Assembly (NCBI RefSeq): GCF_030128825.1
Contig: NZ_CP119127.1
Coordinates: 2,914,001 to 2,978,000 of the forward strand
DNA length: 64,000 bases
DNA from: Sphingobium sp. WTD-1
GTDB lineage: Bacteria > Pseudomonadota > Alphaproteobacteria > Sphingomonadales > Sphingomonadaceae
Direction: 5' to 3'
Both the position numbers and the translations under genes were made by a program. Numbering within the stretch: the stretch's first letter is position 1; each line of letters opens with the position of its first letter. The notes beneath the pieces are model-generated. The model saw nothing but the letters and a program-made list of their open reading frames with translations. It did no database searches and was not told where the DNA came from. This document shows, piece after piece, positions 2,020 through 52,878 of the stretch.

Positions 2020-2502
2020 TTAAACAAGCATGTCTATGCGAAAGCTCAATGCATCATGAAGCTTTCCGTCATTGCCGCGATAGTAACCGGGGCGACGATG
2101 TACATATTCGAAACCAATAGTCTCATAAAGTTTGACCGCCATGTTCGATGCGCGAACTTCCAGGTTCATCGACGTGATGCCACGGCGACGCGCCAGCGTC
2201 AGGCTGTGGCCCAGCAGGGACCGGCCAATGCCACGGCCACGCCATAGCGGATCGACCGCCAGCAGCAGTAGTTCGCATTCGTCCAGCACCGAACGGACCA
2301 GGGCGAAGCCGAGCGGGGCCGCATCGACATGGGCGATGGTCAGCCAGGTGCCGGGCATGGTCATGACGCCCGACAATTGGGGCAGGGTCCAGGCCTCGCC
2401 GAACAGCGGGTCGAAGGCGCGGGTCATCACTTCCATGGCGTCGGCGAGCGCATTGCGCTCGCCCTCATCATAGGTGTCGAGCGTCAGGCCGGCGGGGATC
2501 AT
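2020..2502 (-). CDS. rimI: RimI-like ribosomal protein alanine N-acetyltransferase (GNAT)
   Basis: 160 residues from the ATG at 2500-2502, which overlaps the tsaB stop as ATGA, so translation is coupled. The GNAT acetyl-CoA loop reads VDPLWRGRGIGRSLL (Q/RxxGxG/A motif), followed by MNLEVRASNMAVKLYETIGF, the standard RimI motif B (N-x-A-x-x-L-Y-x-x-x-G-F). RimI acetylates the N-terminal alanine of ribosomal protein S18 in E. coli; in many bacteria rimI follows tsaB as here. A much longer in-frame ORF extends upstream but that part is the out-of-frame shadow of tsaB. Confidence 0.9.
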   Translation of the reverse strand: MIPAGLTLDTYDEGERNALADAMEVMTRAFDPLFGEAWTLPQLSGVMTMPGTWLTIAHVDAAPLGFALVRSVLDECELLLLAVDPLWRGRGIGRSLLGHSLTLARRRGITSMNLEVRASNMAVKLYETIGFEYVHRRPGYYRGNDGKLHDALSFRIDMLV

Positions 2503-3131
2503 GAAGCGGCGCGCTCCGCGATCGTCTTGGCGTCGGCCTCGCGGCCATAGAGCGGGGAGGGGGCAAGCGGCGGCAGCTCTGCAATCAGGCTGTAGCGCGC
2601 AGCTTCGGGATAAAGGGCTATCGCGGTGCCGTCGCCGCGTGCGGTGACCAGCGCCTCGGCCCCGGTGCCGTAAAATTGCGTCATGTCCAGTTGGGTCGCG
2701 AGCGTGGCGATCGGCGTGGAGGCGGGCTGGGTCGTGGCGGTGCGGCCATCGGCCTCGAACAATTGCCAGAAGAGTTCGCCATGGCCGCCGGTGATGGTGA
2801 CGGCGATCGGACCTTCCTGATGGTCGGCGGCCGCCATCGCGGCGATCAGGCAAAAGGCGCTATAGCCATGGAGCGGCACCGACCAGGCGAGCGCCAAGGC
2901 GCGGGCGGCGGCGATGCCGATGCGCACGCCGGTAAAGCTGCCCGGCCCGACATCGACCGCGATCGCATCGGCGCGCCCGCCATCGGGCAGCGCGGCGATC
3001 GCGGGCAGCAGCGCTTCGGCATGGCCGCGGCCGACGATTTCATGAAAATGGCCGATTGGCTGGCCGTCTTCCAGCAGCGCAACGGACAGCGCCTGCGTGG
3101 CGGTGTCGATGACCAATATGCGCAAATTCAC
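2499..3131 (-). CDS. tsaB: tRNA N6-threonylcarbamoyladenosine biosynthesis protein TsaB
   Basis: 210 residues, ASKHA fold. The N-terminus ILVIDTATQALSVALLEDG is the phosphate-1 region, and DVGPGSFTGVRIGIAAARALALAW (residues about 60-83) is the signature of TsaB/YeaZ. TsaB is the non-catalytic partner of TsaD and TsaE in forming t6A37 in tRNAs reading ANN codons. Its stop overlaps the rimI start, and the nfuA gene ends upstream (82-base gap), the usual nfuA-tsaB-rimI arrangement in sphingomonads. Confidence 0.94.
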   Translation of the reverse strand: MNLRILVIDTATQALSVALLEDGQPIGHFHEIVGRGHAEALLPAIAALPDGGRADAIAVDVGPGSFTGVRIGIAAARALALAWSVPLHGYSAFCLIAAMAAADHQEGPIAVTITGGHGELFWQLFEADGRTATTQPASTPIATLATQLDMTQFYGTGAEALVTARGDGTAIALYPEAARYSLIAELPPLAPSPLYGREADAKTIAERAAS

Positions 3132-3213
3132 TCCCCCGAAGCCGCGGTGCCGATATGGATATGGCTGCGGTTAATCGATCCGGCGCGATTTGCCAAATCC
3201 GGTCATCGCAGCG

Positions 3214-3792
3214 TCAGACCGCGCGGACTTCCGTCACTTCCGGCACATAATGTTTGAGCAACTGCTCGATGCCGTTCTTGAGCGTGGCGGAGGAGGAGGG
3301 GCAGCCGGCACAGGCGCCCTGCATGCGCAGATAGACGGTGCCCTTGTCGAAGCCGCGATAGATGATGTCGCCGCCGTCATTGGCTACGGCCGGGCGCACG
3401 CGGGTTTCGATCAGATCCTTGATCTGGTCGACGATCTCGGCATCTTCTGGATCGTCGGTAAAAGCCTCTTCCTCGGCCGGGACGCTGAAGCCCGCAGCGG
3501 TGCCGGCGGCGAACAGCGGCATGTTGGCCGAGAAATGGTCAAGCAGGATCGAGAGGATTTCCGGCTTCACGTCGCTCCATTCGGCGCCTGGCGCGATCGT
3601 CACCGAAATGAAGTCGGCGCCGAAGAAGACGCCGGTCACGTCACCCAGGCCGAACAGCGCATCGGCCAACGGCGAGGCTTCCGCCTCTTCAGGGCTGGCG
3701 AAGTCGCGGGTTCCTGCAGCGCCCATGACGGCCTGGCCGGGGAGGAATTTGACGGTCGCCGGATTGGGCGTGAGTTCAGTCTCGATCAGCAT
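3214..3792 (-). CDS. nfuA: NfuA-type Fe-S cluster carrier (Nfu_N plus NifU C-terminal domain)
   Basis: 192 residues. Residues 1-90 form an Nfu_N (scaffold N-terminal) domain starting MLIETELTPNPATVKFLPG. The NifU-like C-terminal domain (about 118-190) contains RPAVANDGGDIIYRGF and the cluster-binding motif CAGCPSSSATLKNGIE with C161 and C164. Such proteins bind a 4Fe-4S cluster across a homodimer and deliver it to target apoproteins. The gene is divergent from the flavin-fold gene at 3898 with a 105-base gap that must hold both promoters. All key residues are present. Confidence 0.93.
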   Translation of the reverse strand: MLIETELTPNPATVKFLPGQAVMGAAGTRDFASPEEAEASPLADALFGLGDVTGVFFGADFISVTIAPGAEWSDVKPEILSILLDHFSANMPLFAAGTAAGFSVPAEEEAFTDDPEDAEIVDQIKDLIETRVRPAVANDGGDIIYRGFDKGTVYLRMQGACAGCPSSSATLKNGIEQLLKHYVPEVTEVRAV

Positions 3793-48001: not shown

Positions 48002-49924
48002 TCAGGCCTCCGCTATCTTCGACTTCCAATCCAGATCGAGCGCCTCGAAAATCTCAGGCCCGAACCGCAGCGCACCGTTGAACGGCTTGAGCGAGTCAAG
48101 GTCGATACCCTCGGGCGCGGTGTAGCTGATCGTCACATGCGGCGCATATTCCGGCCAGTCATGCGACCCGCCGGCTTCGATCATGTCCTTGTGCCGCCAG
48201 TCGAGATCGGGACAAGCGAAGCGCAGCACAACGGCATTCTCGCCCAGCTTCTCGATGGCCCGCGGGCCACCGGGGCGAACGATGATCTGGCCCTTCTCGT
48301 CCTCACGCCAGTCTCGGCCCATCTTCATGGGATCGACCGGACTGCGGGAGTAGAGAACTGTGACGTGCATGTCGCTGGCGGGCAGGGTGGTGGCAAAGCC
48401 GTTATCCTTGGCCCACGCGATCAGGTCGGCGGCGTTCAGCAGCTTGCGCTGGACATAGAGCGGGCGCGGCGTGGCGTCTGACAGCCAGGTCGCAGCATCA
48501 TTCACAGCACGGCGGGCGGGATTGGGGTCAGCATTCCCGCCGCTACCGGCAGATCCCTGACCACCTCCTTTCTCTCCGAGGGGCACGATCCCCAGTTCGG
48601 ATTCGTCAACCTTTTTGGGAAGCTCTTTGCCAGCGGCCTCCGCGTCCTCGATCGCCTTCTTCAGGCCCGGCCAGCGTCCGCTCTCGATCAGGCGGTTCTG
48701 GACGGTCTTGGCCATCGCGGTTTCGGGCACCAAGGCGAGGCTCACGATCTTTTCGAGGGCTTGGGCTTCCTTCAGTTCGATGTCGGCCGCCTGCTGCTCC
48801 GTCAGCACCATGAGCGTCGAGAAGGTCCACGGCAGATCGGCGGGCACGCCGGCGGACGGGAGCATGACCGCATCGATCTGCTGCATGGGCGGGCGAAGCT
48901 GCATGTCCTGCTTGGCGCCGACGCCCTGGAAATAGTTGGCAAGGTCGCTTTCGCCGGTGGCGTTCATACCATCGGGGGATTTGCCGAACAGGCGCACCGC
49001 CGGCATGTCAGCGGCGCCGGCACATCGGCCGTCGTAGGTGGTGATGACATCGCGCACACCAGCCAGCGAAAGCTGGCGCTGCTCCCACTCGTCTTCCTTG
49101 TCGAGAATGACCGCGCGATGGACGCTCTTGCCCGTATTGGTCAGCTTCACGCGCTTCATCAGCTTCTCTTCGCCATCGGGCTGGCTGAGCTGGTCGACCG
49201 TTCCGTTGAACCGGAACACGTCGATCTTGGCCTCATCGATCAGCGCGGAGAAGCCGGCGCAGGCGGTGGTGGCCTGCTGAACAGCTTCGTCGCAGGCTTC
49301 CACGACGGACATGCCCCAGAAGTTATCCTCCCACAATGTCATGCGGATCGCGGGGATGGGCAACCCCTTGAATACGGCGACGCGCGAGGGGTGGATATCG
49401 ACTTGGCGCCCTGTGCCCGACAGGCGGAAATGGCGCCCTGTGCTCGACAGGCGGAAATAGCGGGGCTGGCCGAAGTTGTTGCTCTCCGGGTCCGTCTCCA
49501 TTTCGCCAAGCGACAACTGCCAGCGCGAGAGGACGGACAGGTAGCGGATCTGGCCAGGCCGGATCGAGGCAGGCAGGGGCTTGGTCGGATCGTCGCCAAG
49601 GCCGATCAGGATAGCGCCGCCGCCGAGGCGTCCGAGGGTCAGCGCCTCATACAGCTTGGGCCAGTAGCCTAGGCGCTTTTCCTCTTTCTCGATGGCGCTG
49701 ATCTGGTCGTCCGACGCGTCCCAATCGCGGCCGGCGCGGGTCATGTCCTGCGCGGGGATGTCCACGATCTTGCGATGCAGCCAGGAGCCGAGATAGGCGC
49801 TCTCGATCTGCTCGGGGGTGGTGAACCGGCGCATCCAGAAGTTGTGCGCTGAGCGGTCGACTGTCGTGCCGCGCCCGGTCAAAACGTTGGCCAGGCCATC
49901 CCAGAGGCGCGTCACGGTTCCCAT
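48002..49924 (-). CDS. Portal protein (DUF1073-type) fused to a C-terminal 2H-phosphoesterase (Acb1-like) domain
   Basis: 640 residues. Residues 1-445 are a DUF1073-type portal: SAYLGSWLHRKIVDIPAQDMTRAGRDW, GRLGGGAILIGLGDD, and ATGESDLANYFQGVGAKQD. After a Gly/Ser/Pro linker (GGGQGSAGSGGNADPN, about 458-473) comes a domain with two HxT motifs: SDMHVTVLYS (H520, T522) and APHVTISYT (H596, T598), the 2H-phosphoesterase signature seen in the anti-CBASS nuclease Acb1, which degrades cyclic oligonucleotide signals. A 27-base tandem duplication sits near residue 165. An overlap with the Mu F gene suggests translational coupling. Confidence 0.85.
   Translation of the reverse strand: MGTVTRLWDGLANVLTGRGTTVDRSAHNFWMRRFTTPEQIESAYLGSWLHRKIVDIPAQDMTRAGRDWDASDDQISAIEKEEKRLGYWPKLYEALTLGRLGGGAILIGLGDDPTKPLPASIRPGQIRYLSVLSRWQLSLGEMETDPESNNFGQPRYFRLSSTGRHFRLSGTGRQVDIHPSRVAVFKGLPIPAIRMTLWEDNFWGMSVVEACDEAVQQATTACAGFSALIDEAKIDVFRFNGTVDQLSQPDGEEKLMKRVKLTNTGKSVHRAVILDKEDEWEQRQLSLAGVRDVITTYDGRCAGAADMPAVRLFGKSPDGMNATGESDLANYFQGVGAKQDMQLRPPMQQIDAVMLPSAGVPADLPWTFSTLMVLTEQQAADIELKEAQALEKIVSLALVPETAMAKTVQNRLIESGRWPGLKKAIEDAEAAGKELPKKVDESELGIVPLGEKGGGQGSAGSGGNADPNPARRAVNDAATWLSDATPRPLYVQRKLLNAADLIAWAKDNGFATTLPASDMHVTVLYSRSPVDPMKMGRDWREDEKGQIIVRPGGPRAIEKLGENAVVLRFACPDLDWRHKDMIEAGGSHDWPEYAPHVTISYTAPEGIDLDSLKPFNGALRFGPEIFEALDLDWKSKIAEA
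49404..49457 (-). repeat. In-frame 27-bp tandem duplication in the portal gene
   Basis: Two copies of a 27-base unit (49404-49430 and 49431-49457) that differ at one position. The encoded nine residues (FRLSSTGRH / FRLSGTGRQ) are duplicated. The near-identity suggests a recent event. Confidence 0.85.
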
Positions 49925-49966: not shown

Positions 49967-52387
49967 TTAAAGCACGTCGAATGCGCTGCCCTTGCCGTTC
50001 AGCATCAGCTCAGTGAGCGCCCACACCATAGCATCAGCCCGGTCAGGCGATCCCTCTCCGACGAACCCCGACGCGGTGAAGTTGCACATCTGGTCCTCAA
50101 GGTCTGGGAAATCGCCAACATGGCTGACCTTCCCCTGCTCGTAGAGCGCTGATATCGGCTCTGCGCGGACGACCTTGCCGCGCGTCGCGTTCGCCTCCTT
50201 GTAAGGGACCGAATTGTCGGCCGTCTTCACCACAAACTCGACCATGGCGCCGCCAAAGTTGCGTTCGCCAACGACGCGATCGGCACCCCACCGACGATAC
50301 ATCTCGACCGAGCGCCGGCCCCACCCATCAGGCGATAGCTGGCAGGTCGCATCCTGCAGCACATAGCCGCGGCCATCAATACCCTTTGCCGCGACCACGA
50401 TGCCAATATCGTCGCCGCCGCCGTCTCCTTTTGTGCCGCTCGGATCGACCGCGACCACGATGCGCTGGAGGTCGATCACTGCCCCGGCATATCGAACCTG
50501 AGGCCTGCCGTCGTCTGGGCTGCGCTCCAGCGTCGCCCGGTGTACGTCAATGCCAGGTATCGTTCCGCCCTCGGTCTGGCGGTCCTCCAACGCCCACAGC
50601 GCCCCGTTGACCTCGCTCGCCCATTCGCCAGCCTCGAAACGGAGCCGTTTGGCCGCCGACATGGACGCCAGCACCTCGAAATATTCCGCCGGCAGATTGT
50701 CCGCATTGTCGGACGGGTTGACCTTCATTTCGGCATAGTCGTCAGGGTTCGGCAGCGGCTCCTTTGTGCCCGGCTTCACCTTGGCGCGGAACATCTGGAA
50801 CGACCAGTGCAGCTTACTCGGCGGGTTGCAGTTATGGCTGACAAACCCATTGGCGAGATAATGCCGAGAAAAAGGCACATCCACTGTGTAAAATGCAACG
50901 GTGGTTGGTTGACTAATATCAACCACTGTTTCATATTCATGCCCTGCGACGACAGGGGTATCAGATGCCAGCGAGAGACTTTTCCGCCCTTCACGACCGG
51001 GGCCATTCGGATCAAGAGATAGCCGCGCTAGAAGGTTGCAGCGTAGCCACTGTCTGCCGATGGCGGCAGCGTCACGGGCTGTCCGCCAATACCAAGCGAG
51101 AGTTAGTCGAGGGCGAGCAATGGCAGGAGGTTCGCCGCCTGATTGAGCAAGGCGAACCGCTGTCAGAGGTGTCGCGTCAGACCGGGATTTTCGTTGAGAC
51201 GATCCGCAAATTTGCTGCGCGGCGTGGGCTGGAATACGCCCGCGCTGATCGCCGGACGCCTGCGAAAGAGGTTCACGGGACGATTGGCTATGGAGGCTAT
51301 GTCGAGCTTCGGGTTGATCGAGACGGCCCATACGGGAACCTGATCCGTCATGGAGGCAAGCACACCGGCTATGCTGCCCTGCATCGGATGCGGATGCAGG
51401 ACAAACTTGGTCGCCATCTACTGCCGGGCGAAGTTGTCCATCACATTGATGGAGACATCTACAACAATTCTCCGGCCAATCTGGCGGTGTTTGCGTCTGA
51501 GCGGGATCACCTTGACCATCATGCGGAAACTGGGATTGAGCGCTGCAAAGAAGCTCGTGACCGATGGCGATAGCATCTAGCCGCTTCCACCCGTCTCGCG
51601 TCCAGAACCGATGCGAGGCGGTGGCGCGAATTGTGCGGCCTGCCGAGGTCGTGACAGTGAACACTTCACCGTAGCCGTTCAGCCACGGCGCAGACGAAAG
51701 GCGCGGGCCGTGCGTGGTCATCACCGTGATTGGCTCACCAGTCTCCGCAAGCTCCGCAATGGTCTTTGTGTGGCCGTCCAGCACCGTTTCGCCTGCAACG
51801 CAGTCGTAGTAGGCCTTGAGCGGCAGATGGGTTCGCCCGGTGGCCGCCGCGATCTTGGGTGCCAGCTCGCACTTCTGCGCGAGACGAGACATGGCGATTT
51901 CCACCGATCCCCAAGGAATCTGGCTGCTCTCGTTGAAGTAGAGCGTGCAATATTCCGCGCCAAGGATCTTCTCGACCCGCTCCTTGTCGTCCAGGCCAGC
52001 GATCCAGATTTGCGACCCGTTGGGCAGTTCGACATAGAAATCCGTCTTGTCGAACCGGACGCGAAGGGCAGGGAAGCATAGCTTCAGCACCTTGGGGAGC
52101 GTGTCGGCCCAGATGCTTGTTTTCGCGTGATTGAAGCGGAAGCGGAATATCGCGTGCCGGCTGCCTGGGGCGTTGATGGCGCGCTGGACGATCGCGCGGC
52201 ACAGCAGGAAGGTCTTTCCCGAGCGCGAGCCGCCGCGGAGCATGATGTTGCGAGCAGGGGAGGCAAGGAGGTCGCGCGCCTCTTCCTGCCTCGGGGTCAG
52301 CTTGGCGATCGGCGGGCCGCCGTTATGGCCTATGCCAACCGGCCGCTCGGCAGTGATTTCATCAGCAAATCCAGTTTCTGGACTCAA
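49967..52387 (-). CDS. Terminase large subunit interrupted by an intein
   Basis: 806 residues precursor. Exteins: residues 1-195 and 520-806, which fuse to a 482-residue TerL. ATPase: Walker A LRGGSRSGKTF (50-60), Walker B CTLYFNESSQI (147-157) and coupling SAT-like AAATG. The extein junction lies at YYD|C196 and N519|C520-NPP, in the conserved DCNPPSK motif, so insertion is in an essential site. The nuclease domain has VVAVDPSGTKGDGGGDD, and ends with DRADAMVWALTEL. TerL packages and cuts concatemeric phage DNA. Start overlaps the terS stop. Confidence 0.92.
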   Translation of the reverse strand: MSPETGFADEITAERPVGIGHNGGPPIAKLTPRQEEARDLLASPARNIMLRGGSRSGKTFLLCRAIVQRAINAPGSRHAIFRFRFNHAKTSIWADTLPKVLKLCFPALRVRFDKTDFYVELPNGSQIWIAGLDDKERVEKILGAEYCTLYFNESSQIPWGSVEIAMSRLAQKCELAPKIAAATGRTHLPLKAYYDCVAGETVLDGHTKTIAELAETGEPITVMTTHGPRLSSAPWLNGYGEVFTVTTSAGRTIRATASHRFWTRDGWKRLDAIAIGHELLCSAQSQFPHDGQGDPAQTQTPPDWPENCCRCLHQCDGQLRPAVDGDQVCPASASDAGQHSRCACLHDGSGSRMGRLDQPEARHSLHSQSSREPLSQASGDQRGRIPAHAAQQICGSSQRKSRSDATPLTAVRLAQSGGEPPAIARPRLTLAWYWRTARDAAAIGRQWLRCNLLARLSLDPNGPGREGRKSLSLASDTPVVAGHEYETVVDISQPTTVAFYTVDVPFSRHYLANGFVSHNCNPPSKLHWSFQMFRAKVKPGTKEPLPNPDDYAEMKVNPSDNADNLPAEYFEVLASMSAAKRLRFEAGEWASEVNGALWALEDRQTEGGTIPGIDVHRATLERSPDDGRPQVRYAGAVIDLQRIVVAVDPSGTKGDGGGDDIGIVVAAKGIDGRGYVLQDATCQLSPDGWGRRSVEMYRRWGADRVVGERNFGGAMVEFVVKTADNSVPYKEANATRGKVVRAEPISALYEQGKVSHVGDFPDLEDQMCNFTASGFVGEGSPDRADAMVWALTELMLNGKGSAFDVL
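50831..51802 (-). other. TerL intein (mini-intein splicing domain around an antisense insertion)
   Basis: 324 residues, 196-519 of the precursor. Block A is CVAGETVLDGHTKTIAEL (Cys1); block B is GRTIRATASHRFWTRDG (T-x-x-H); block F/G is TVDVPFSRHYLANGFVSHN with the terminal His-Asn, followed by Cys+1 of the extein. The splicing segments (76 and 44 residues) sum to a mini-intein. Between them, residues about 272-475 show strange composition (Ser/Gln/Cys/Pro-rich) and are exactly antisense to the HNH gene at 50965-51573. No LAGLIDADG or sense HNH is present in the intein frame. Confidence 0.88.
50965..51573 (+). CDS. HNH homing endonuclease gene nested antisense inside the TerL intein
   Basis: 202 residues. 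Two helix-turn-helix units (HSDQEIAALEGCSVATVCRW, then EPLSEVSRQTGIFVETIRKF) are followed by GYVELRVDRDGPYGNLIRHGGKHTGY and the HNH core GEVVHHIDGDIYNNSPANLA and FASERDHLDHH. This is the common phage HNH layout, and this frame, not the opposite one, has protein-like composition. The ORF lies wholly within the intein on the opposite strand, in the site where homing endonucleases usually lie in sense. The intein frame has no stop over these 609 bases. The start has only a weak ribosome site (AGGGGTATCAG). Confidence 0.85.
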   Translation: MPARDFSALHDRGHSDQEIAALEGCSVATVCRWRQRHGLSANTKRELVEGEQWQEVRRLIEQGEPLSEVSRQTGIFVETIRKFAARRGLEYARADRRTPAKEVHGTIGYGGYVELRVDRDGPYGNLIRHGGKHTGYAALHRMRMQDKLGRHLLPGEVVHHIDGDIYNNSPANLAVFASERDHLDHHAETGIERCKEARDRWR

Positions 52388-52878
52388 AGCGCAGCGTCCT
52401 TAGGATCAATCACCAGCGTCATCGCCGCAGCGACCTCCAGCTTCTCCTTGAAGGCCTGCACGTCGACATGCTTGCCGATCAGTTCGACCCGCTTGATCCG
52501 CTCGCTAATCTTGACCTTCGTGACCTGGCCAGCGCCTGCGCCGATCGTCTCGACCTCGATGCCCGCGACAAGGCCTTGGCGCCAAACCAATGGCCAATCC
52601 TTCACCGGTTTCACCCGGCCATGTTCATCATACAGATCAGCAAGGTCAGCGAAGGCTTCGGCGGCGAGCCGGCTCAATACCCATGCGGCATCAATTCCCG
52701 TTTCCTTCGACCGCTTGGCCTTGGCCTCTGAGACGGCATTACGGACGCTAACATTCGCTAACAGTCGCGCCCCTTGCTCGTTTGCCGTCTTCGCGCTGTA
52801 GCCTGCCCGAATGGCCGCCTGAGTGGCATTCAGGTCGATCAGGTATTCATCCACGAAGCGCTGTTGCTTCGGAGTCAT
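52384..52878 (-). CDS. Terminase small subunit
   Basis: 164 residues. MTPKQQRFVDEYLIDLNATQAAIRAGYSAKTANEQGARLLANVSV is the typical Terminase_2 helix-turn-helix; the region near residue 70 (AFADLADLYDEHGRV) and C-terminal coiled segment (RIKRVELIGKHVDVQAF) complete the oligomerisation part. It recognises the packaging site and loads TerL; the two genes overlap. Confidence 0.92.
   Translation of the reverse strand: MTPKQQRFVDEYLIDLNATQAAIRAGYSAKTANEQGARLLANVSVRNAVSEAKAKRSKETGIDAAWVLSRLAAEAFADLADLYDEHGRVKPVKDWPLVWRQGLVAGIEVETIGAGAGQVTKVKISERIKRVELIGKHVDVQAFKEKLEVAAAMTLVIDPKDAAL

What the first reader, a model, noticed from the sequence alone, without database searches (positions are those of the whole stretch)
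50831..51802. Intein in TerL carries its homing endonuclease gene on the opposite strand
Seen: terL has blocks A, B, F and G of an intein (C196 to N519, followed by Cys+1). The space between B and F is antisense to a 202-codon HNH gene with two HTH domains and an intact HHIDG...N...H core. The intein frame has no stop across those 609 bases although its translation there is unlike a protein domain. Known: homing endonucleases are normally in frame in the intein or lie outside the gene. Inference: an HNH gene invaded a mini-intein in reverse and both strands are now under coding constraint. I know of no described intein with this architecture. It may be a way to regulate homing separately from terminase expression, and antisense transcription could interfere with terL.
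Basis: partly seen in the sequence, partly recalled or inferred. Interest (0 to 1): 0.93.

Follow-up and report, generated by a model that had tools for sequence, protein, structure and literature searches.

The report
Intein with antisense homing-endonuclease gene
In this prophage, and in many other phages, a self-splicing protein insert in a packaging or helicase gene carries the gene for its likely DNA-cutting enzyme on the opposite DNA strand, so one stretch of DNA encodes two different products in two directions.

Summary
The prophage TerL carries a complete intein (C196-N519, 324 aa); a 95%-identical intein-free TerL has exactly the predicted spliced length, 482 aa. The part between blocks B and F is antisense to an intact two-HTH + HNH gene. 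The same architecture, always in one phase (codon position 1 opposite position 1), occurs in 203 fetched loci (redundant; 115 clusters at 90% nt), nearly all uncultured phages, mostly at Walker A motifs, typically of TerL, also in helicases and in nine cultured phages. In 202 of 203 the intein frame is open. Synonymous shuffling predicts 789 intein-frame stops over the 115 clusters; 0 are seen. HNH amino acids are under purifying selection; the intein-frame residues opposite evolve almost neutrally and only must lack stops. The HNH gene usually has its own ATG and Shine-Dalgarno, sometimes a sigma-70-like promoter, inside the block F coding region, and co-diverges with the splicing domain (rho 0.73). 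Best reading: a widespread mobile-intein class whose homing endonuclease is encoded and expressed from the opposite strand. Splicing, cleavage and expression are not shown. My paper searches (open-licence library) found no description.

The parts
49967..52387 (-). terL ORF, 806 aa (TTG start), interrupted in frame by an intein; exteins 51803-52387 and 49967-50830
50831..51802 (-). intein, 324 aa, C196 to N519, followed by Cys520 (+1)
   Evidence: empty site D|CNPPSK in the 482-aa homologue P0047
51545..51802 (-). intein N-terminal splicing part (blocks A and B: CVAGETVLDG ... TASHRFW)
   Evidence: residues 201-280 have block-mean pLDDT 58-85
50831..50965 (-). intein C-terminal splicing part (blocks F and G: FYTVDVPF ... 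LANGFVSHN|C)
   Evidence: residues 481-520 have block-mean pLDDT 56-82
50965..51573 (+). antisense HNH endonuclease gene, 202 aa, inside the intein; codon position 1 opposite intein codon position 1
50989..51078 (+). first HTH of the HNH protein (HTH_23, residues 9-38)
51115..51204 (+). second HTH (HTH_7, residues 51-80)
51376..51492 (+). HNH_3 nuclease domain (residues 138-176; HHIDGD...N...N core)
   Evidence: invariant residues in A2
50954..50958 (+). Shine-Dalgarno-like AGGGG, 6 nt before the HNH ATG; reads as part of TP in the intein frame
50909..50937 (+). sigma-70-like promoter candidate TTGACT-17-CATATT (9 of 12), ending 27 nt before the HNH ATG, inside the block F coding region
   Evidence: 1 found, 0.4 expected in shuffles; alone not significant (P 0.13)

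Best explanation
This is a mobile intein whose homing endonuclease is encoded antisense to its splicing domain. The terL mRNA is translated straight through; the read of the antisense HNH gene is a roughly 190-residue linker, probably disordered, between the two halves of the splicing domain, and the intein excises itself to give the 482-aa TerL. Separately, an HNH protein with two helix-turn-helix domains is made from the opposite strand, using its own start codon and Shine-Dalgarno and probably its own promoter inside the block F coding region. It would cut the intein-free terL allele of a co-infecting phage, and repair copies the intein with its antisense gene into the gap. Shown here by sequence: complete splicing motifs, empty-site homologue, intact HNH, fixed phase, absence of stops on both strands, purifying selection on HNH (in relatives), SD and promoter-like signals, co-divergence. 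Inferred: splicing, expression, target-site cleavage, homing.
For: Empty site of the exact predicted length. Same architecture, same phase, in 203 of 336 loci with an HNH hit, 202 of 203 with the intein frame open and in register (redundant loci); 115 clusters at 90% nt. 0 intein-frame stops against 789.2 expected over 25,211 codons of all 115 clusters; of the other two antisense phases one is unchanged by this shuffle and so says nothing (960), the other is slightly above expectation (1226 against 1129.8); Phe followed by Met/Ile/Thr/Asn/Lys, which always makes an intein-frame stop, occurs 0 times (82.0 expected), against 50 (48.3 expected) in 129 control loci. 34 disjoint pairs: transition rate 0.0947 for HNH-synonymous/intein-nonsynonymous changes, 0.0273 for HNH-nonsynonymous/intein-synonymous ones, 0.1180 for synonymous changes in intein flanks; transversions 0.0483, 0.0176, 0.0525. 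HNH starts: 104 of 114 ATG, median SD duplex -7.3 against -4.1 at internal starts; promoter score 10 or more in 27 of 114, against 2 of 114 on the other strand of the same DNA and 0 of 114 inside HNH. Splicing domain and HNH distances correlate, rho 0.73 (permutation maximum 0.072), against 0.48 for splicing domain and extein (111 clusters). HNH-less 155-aa mini-inteins in a sister site.
Against: No splicing, cleavage, transcript or protein was observed. For the window alone the stop test is only P 0.03 and its promoter P 0.13. Pfam's intein model is insensitive here: of 34 antisense-HNH ORFs scanned 31 match it at E 0.1 or better but only 12 reach its cut-off, and L032, L276 and L280 do not match; the window is just under it. 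For many clusters the intein call rests on flank profiles trained on the first loci. Control HNH genes also show a mild deficit in this phase (931 against 1040.2). In the Pectobacterium phages synonymous sites of HNH change three times less than in flanks (pS 0.068 against 0.20-0.23), so the linker or another element may be constrained there. No DNA of a close relative of the window's own element was available, so selection was measured on relatives only. The families were found by HNH, or by inteins already known to carry it, so 100 of 106 is not a frequency among all inteins. L261 has a broken intein frame and L418 a broken HNH.
Confidence: 0.86

Rival explanations
1. Shadow ORF: the + strand reading frame is a chance by-product of a GC-rich gene and the intein frame is the only real one.
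For: The window is GC-rich and its own stop test is weak (P 0.03).
Against: The HNH frame has 42 homologues and HTH and HNH domains above curated cut-offs; selection acts on the HNH frame, not on the intein frame opposite it; members with less GC such as PHS3 (45%) expect 8 stops and have none.
Confidence: 0.01
2. Packaging nuclease: the HNH protein works with the terminase in DNA packaging, as described for HK97 gp74-type HNH proteins (recalled; the start of one abstract, on GVE2 HNH, was seen in the listing), and its place in terL reflects that.
For: Most members whose host protein could be named sit in terL (Pfam terminase match in 17 of 34 ORFs scanned, some weak; PHROG terminase match in 9 of 13).
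Against: The gene is inside an intein at the usual endonuclease position, also occurs in a DNA helicase gene (L020) and a helicase-like gene (L060, weak matches), is absent together with the intein from a 95%-identical TerL (P0047), carries two HTH domains in the window, and tracks the splicing domain better than the extein (0.73 against 0.50).
Confidence: 0.06
3. The HNH protein is a relic or a repressor: both frames persist because a stop would kill TerL, but HNH no longer drives homing and at most binds its own locus through its HTH domains.
For: Stop avoidance alone protects only the intein frame; HTH domains could autoregulate.
Against: Purifying selection on HNH amino acids, nuclease motif kept, only 1 of 100 HNH broken inside the domain in the intein-first set, intein-free close homologue (P0047).
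Confidence: 0.07

Closest known systems
Mobile inteins with an in-frame homing endonuclease domain, e.g. the HNH_3 intein of cyanophage CL131 dCTP deaminase (PMC6293099, passages read); phage TerL inteins (PMC5050341, passages read)
   Same: Splicing blocks A, B, F, G; endonuclease at the site between B and F; TerL ATPase-domain host sites
   Different: Here the endonuclease is a separate gene on the opposite strand; the intein frame opposite it encodes a linker of no conserved sequence
[quoted passage not shown]
   Same: HNH gene overlapping a host frame that stays open
   Different: [quoted passage not shown] here the gene is antisense and inside a complete intein
Fractured genes with split inteins (Dassa 2009; recalled, seen here only as a reference title, the paper is not held)
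   Same: A separate endonuclease gene between the intein halves
   Different: There the host gene is broken in two and splices in trans (recalled); here the host gene stays one uninterrupted ORF
Antisense homing endonuclease genes in nuclear group I introns (PMC9548176, abstract and outline read)
   Same: Endonuclease gene antisense to the host of the element; there expression and cleavage were shown
   Different: An intron RNA need not stay translatable; here both strands are protein-coding

Membership tests
Intein (PF14890) | N-terminal Cys/Ser, block B TxxH, block F, block G His-Asn, +1 Cys/Ser/Thr | tested here: met
   C196, TASH, FYTVDVP, SHN|C; Pfam 32.9 bits against cut-off 35.8; NCBIfam C-terminal model above, N-terminal model below cut-off
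Intein (PF14890) | Intein-free alleles with an uninterrupted host gene | tested here: met
   P0047, 482 aa, 95% identity
Intein (PF14890) | Self-splicing | not testable with these tools
   needs expression
HNH homing endonuclease | Intact HNH nuclease motif with a DNA-binding module | tested here: met
   HNH_3, HTH_23, HTH_7 above curated cut-offs
HNH homing endonuclease | Cuts the empty insertion site | not testable with these tools
   needs cleavage assay
Classical intein with in-frame endonuclease domain | Endonuclease in the same frame as the splicing domain | tested here: not met
   HNH on the opposite strand
Fractured gene / split intein | Host gene split into two ORFs around a free-standing endonuclease gene | tested here: not met
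   terL is one ORF of 806 codons
ShiLan-type hidden HNH insertion | Out-of-frame HNH without a splicing domain | tested here: not met
   splicing blocks present and antisense strand
Packaging HNH (HK97 gp74 type) | Needed for terminase function | not testable with these tools
   indirect evidence against: absent with the intein in P0047; present in helicase-type genes

The most novel reading that the evidence does not exclude
The antisense layout is a working regulatory device kept for its own sake: a promoter buried in the block F coding sequence makes the endonuclease early, or from the prophage, apart from the late terL message, and converging antisense transcription holds back terL. That would explain why one ancestral arrangement in one fixed phase spread with the intein over many TerL and helicase sites instead of a sense in-frame domain.
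Probability: 0.25. Interest if true: 0.95.

Novelty: new variant of a known kind. Interest (0 to 1): 0.88.

Why it matters
It would be an unrecognised and apparently common architecture for mobile inteins, and a large natural set of long antisense overlapping genes (overlaps of 167-305 codons, median 232, in 115 clusters) in which both products can be assayed. It could separate endonuclease expression from host-gene expression, explains annotation errors (TerL called hypothetical or cut short in cultured phages), offers many new splicing domains that seem to tolerate long linkers of free sequence, and gives a clean test bed for how overlapping genes are kept open.

Tried and rejected
Shadow-ORF reading: rejected by stop avoidance, dipeptide avoidance and selection counts. 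'Both strands equally constrained': rejected, the intein-frame residues are nearly neutral; in the Pectobacterium phages HNH synonymous change is unusually low, left unexplained. Fold search of the HNH model in the PDB gave nothing below E 0.001. GTDB genome contigs: 0 of 63 loci with an antisense intein; only the window's own genome gave a full-length match among 396 genomes of the order (8 with any match) and 385 of the class (16 with any match). DNA search of INPHARED with the window intein: no match. Brochothrix BL3 and Klebsiella KLB22 regions were fetched for comparison; BL3 was not analysed further. First HNH ORF calling placed some ORFs wrongly; redone. There the motif-and-no-stop filter passed 101 of 115 clusters; the other 14 were read by eye and show a continuous HNH domain, the flagged stops lying at the natural end or before the start, or the motif differing from the pattern.

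Counts and redundancy: loci include the same contigs more than once; the 203 loci are redundant and include the window twice (L001, L146), and the 40 elements and 106 loci are redundant too; the 115 clusters (202 elements, single linkage at 90% nt over 70% of the length) are not. Searches returned only the best 80 of more matches, another the best 80 of 99. Four further loci had only the C-terminal flank (L019, L039, L193, L209) and were not counted (L019 and L039 are among the 40). Controls: 112 of the loci without intein flanks, those with at least 300 bases of ORF. In one search, 4 of 115 clusters with cut flanks were left out (111 used); a start could be chosen in 114 of 115, and 113 served for the null. 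Starts were chosen partly by SD strength; the null picked the same number of internal candidates by nearly the same rule.

Paper searches were seen as listings; passages, sections or outlines were read; the word search found none of its terms. None of these describes an intein with an antisense endonuclease; only open-licence papers are held.
Full report
What is there. terL is a single ORF on the minus strand (49967-52387, 806 aa) between a terminase small subunit (52384-52878) and a portal gene (48002-49924). Residues 196-519 are an intein: Cys1, block B TASH, block F FYTVDVP, block G ending SHN, then Cys+1. P0047, 95% identical and without the intein, is 482 aa, exactly the spliced length. 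Between B and F the opposite strand carries a 202-codon gene with two helix-turn-helix domains and an HNH_3 domain, with 42 homologues, 24 of them 53-95% identical.

How far it extends. Scans of IMG/VR with HNH queries, GTDB contigs, INPHARED and reading of the loci gave 336 loci with an HNH hit; in 203 the HNH gene lies between N- and C-terminal intein flanks found on the other strand without regard to frame. In 202 of 203 both flanks are in one frame with no stop between them; L261 is broken. All 203 have the same phase: HNH codon position 1 opposite intein codon position 1. At 90% nucleotide identity they form 115 clusters. By source: 27 of 80 loci, 75 of 77 new loci, 9 of 12, 80 of 80, 0 of 63 GTDB loci. 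In 108 of 115 clusters the junction reads like a Walker A loop; 69 continue with SGKS or SGKT. The window's site (D|CNPP) is shared by L002 and L003. The host protein was tested for a sample only: a Pfam terminase match at E 0.1 or better in 17 of 34 ORFs, some weak; a PHROG terminase match in 9 of 13, a DNA helicase in one (L020), none in three; L060 has weak helicase matches. The Pfam intein model matches 31 of the 34 at E 0.1 or better and 12 above its cut-off; L032, L276 and L280 do not match, and there the intein call rests on the flank profiles and motifs. Nine cultured phages carry the element: Pectobacterium phages Taid, Ymer, Pappous, Koroua, Amona, Sabo and Abuela, Dickeya phage Setonix (record marked unverified), and Pseudoalteromonas phage PHS3. 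In the seven Pectobacterium records the intein-bearing TerL is called a hypothetical protein; in PHS3 the HNH gene is annotated and terL only as its C-terminal part.

From the intein side. Scanning IMG/VR with intein N-terminal alignments (built from inteins already known to carry the antisense gene) gave 106 loci: 100 have an antisense HNH and an open intein frame, 3 (L433-L435, the same intein) are 155-aa mini-inteins without HNH, 1 (L449) has a sense out-of-frame HNH, and 2 are unclear (L450, L451). Of the 100, seven were flagged for stops in the HNH frame; reading them, six have the stop before the likely start and one (L418) inside the domain.

Both frames are kept open, but for different reasons. 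In this phase an intein-frame stop arises from HNH dicodons NTT-A, NCT-A and NTC-A. Shuffling synonymous codons within each gene predicts 789.2 such stops over 25,211 codons of the 115 clusters; none is seen. Of the other antisense phases, one cannot change under this shuffle (960) and the other shows 1226 against 1129.8. An earlier run on 40 redundant elements gave 0 against 237.6; 112 control HNH genes gave 931 against 1040.2, a mild deficit. For the window alone the expectation is 2.68 (P 0.03). In 34 disjoint pairs of equal length (1-22% different), changes silent in HNH but altering the intein residue occur at 0.0947 per transition opportunity, close to the 0.1180 of synonymous changes in intein flanks, while changes altering HNH but silent in the intein frame occur at 0.0273. 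A few changes scored singly as intein stops appear there (26 sites) because neighbouring changes in the same codon were not considered. Five Pectobacterium-phage haplotypes (8 records) give pN/pS 0.23 in the HNH frame and 0.98 in the intein frame of the overlap, 0.05 in intein flanks and 0.03 in exteins, though there HNH pS is itself low (0.068 against 0.20-0.23). So HNH is a selected protein and the segment opposite it is a tolerated linker. AlphaFold2 agrees as far as it goes: HNH mean pLDDT 84.7; in a weak TerL model (mean 56.1, pTM 0.35) residues 285-476 are below 50 throughout while the splicing parts have block means of 58-85 and 56-82, but the N-terminus and most of 520-594 are also below 50.

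Expression. In 114 of 115 clusters a start could be chosen; 104 are ATG and the median Shine-Dalgarno duplex is -7.3 kcal/mol against -4.1 for internal starts. Upstream of the start the best sigma-70-like score is 10 or more in 27 of 114, against 2 of 114 on the other strand of the same DNA and 0 of 114 inside HNH (means 8.52, 6.52, 5.93; Wilcoxon P 9e-15 and 2e-18); 32% of clusters reach P 0.05 against shuffles of their own sequence. PHS3 has TTGACA-17-GATAAT (11 of 12, where 2 sites were found and 2.6 expected in the region); the window has TTGACT-17-CATATT, 27 nt before the ATG, not significant alone (P 0.13); Taid shows none on that strand. In the window and L002-L003 the SD reads as part of a shared SDTP/FDTP in the intein frame, with DTP also in L004-L007.

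Evolution. Distances between splicing domains and between HNH proteins correlate (rho 0.73, 111 clusters, permutation maximum 0.072), more than splicing domain with extein (0.48) or HNH with extein (0.50). With the invariant phase this points to one ancestral insertion, after which intein and antisense gene moved as one unit. That the phase is invariant for another reason is not excluded.

Mechanism and rivals. The best-supported reading is homing: the intein protects the host protein, the antisense gene supplies the nuclease. Splicing, expression, cutting and homing are inferred. A packaging role is less likely because members occur in helicase-type genes and the gene is absent from a 95%-identical TerL; a relic or regulator is less likely because of selection on the nuclease. 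Relatives of the Pectobacterium-phage terminase without this intein are common: 913 records match the C-terminal extein, 9 records the intein N-terminal part; one, KLB22, was checked and is a 449-codon terL.

Novelty. Antisense endonuclease genes are known in group I introns (PMC9548176, abstract), out-of-frame HNH in a methylase without splicing domain (PMC11855218), and, from memory, endonuclease genes between split-intein halves. The searches listed in Tried and rejected found no intein with an antisense endonuclease gene; the library holds only open-licence papers. I therefore call it a new variant of a known kind, with high interest because it is widespread, statistically solid and testable in cultured phages.

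Noticed in passing
L449 (1568-2575) and L159 (about 2352-3700): Sister layout: an HNH ORF of 313 or 296 codons on the SAME strand in another frame, with the host frame open. L449 is an intein by Pfam (53.2 bits) in a protein with a weak terminase match; L159 is a DNA methylase (N6_N4_Mtase) of a 484-kb phage record whose intein is seen by eye and a profile hit only, not by Pfam.
   Followed up: partly
L433-L435, about 3001-3465: 155-aa mini-intein without HNH at the TerL Walker A site also used by L004-L008; a natural HNH-less version of the element.
   Followed up: partly
L155 1571-3835 (and L157, L161-L165); L156 1616-3594: Annotation errors in cultured phages: TerL with intein is called hypothetical protein in the Pectobacterium phages; in PHS3 only the C-terminal part of terL is annotated, next to an HNH gene on the other strand.
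   Followed up: yes
L005 1569-5078 and L006 1770-4838: The same ORF has a second Hint-type match further downstream (L006 PT-HINT 695-775; weak in L005), so terL may hold two inteins.
   Followed up: no
window 48002-49924 (-), residues 490-635: The portal protein has a C-terminal domain matching a phage 'RNA ligase' family (phrog_755); by eye it looks like a 2H phosphoesterase fused to a portal.
   Followed up: no
window 50906-50925: 7-bp inverted repeat TGGTTGA...TCAACCA overlapping the -35-like hexamer of the HNH promoter candidate; possible operator.
   Followed up: no
L036 1226-5329, L050 2-6304, L136 2-6397 (-): HNH genes antisense to very long open frames in a different phase; no intein match in L036 and L050 (L136 not scanned with Pfam). 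May be ordinary or another overlap type.
   Followed up: no
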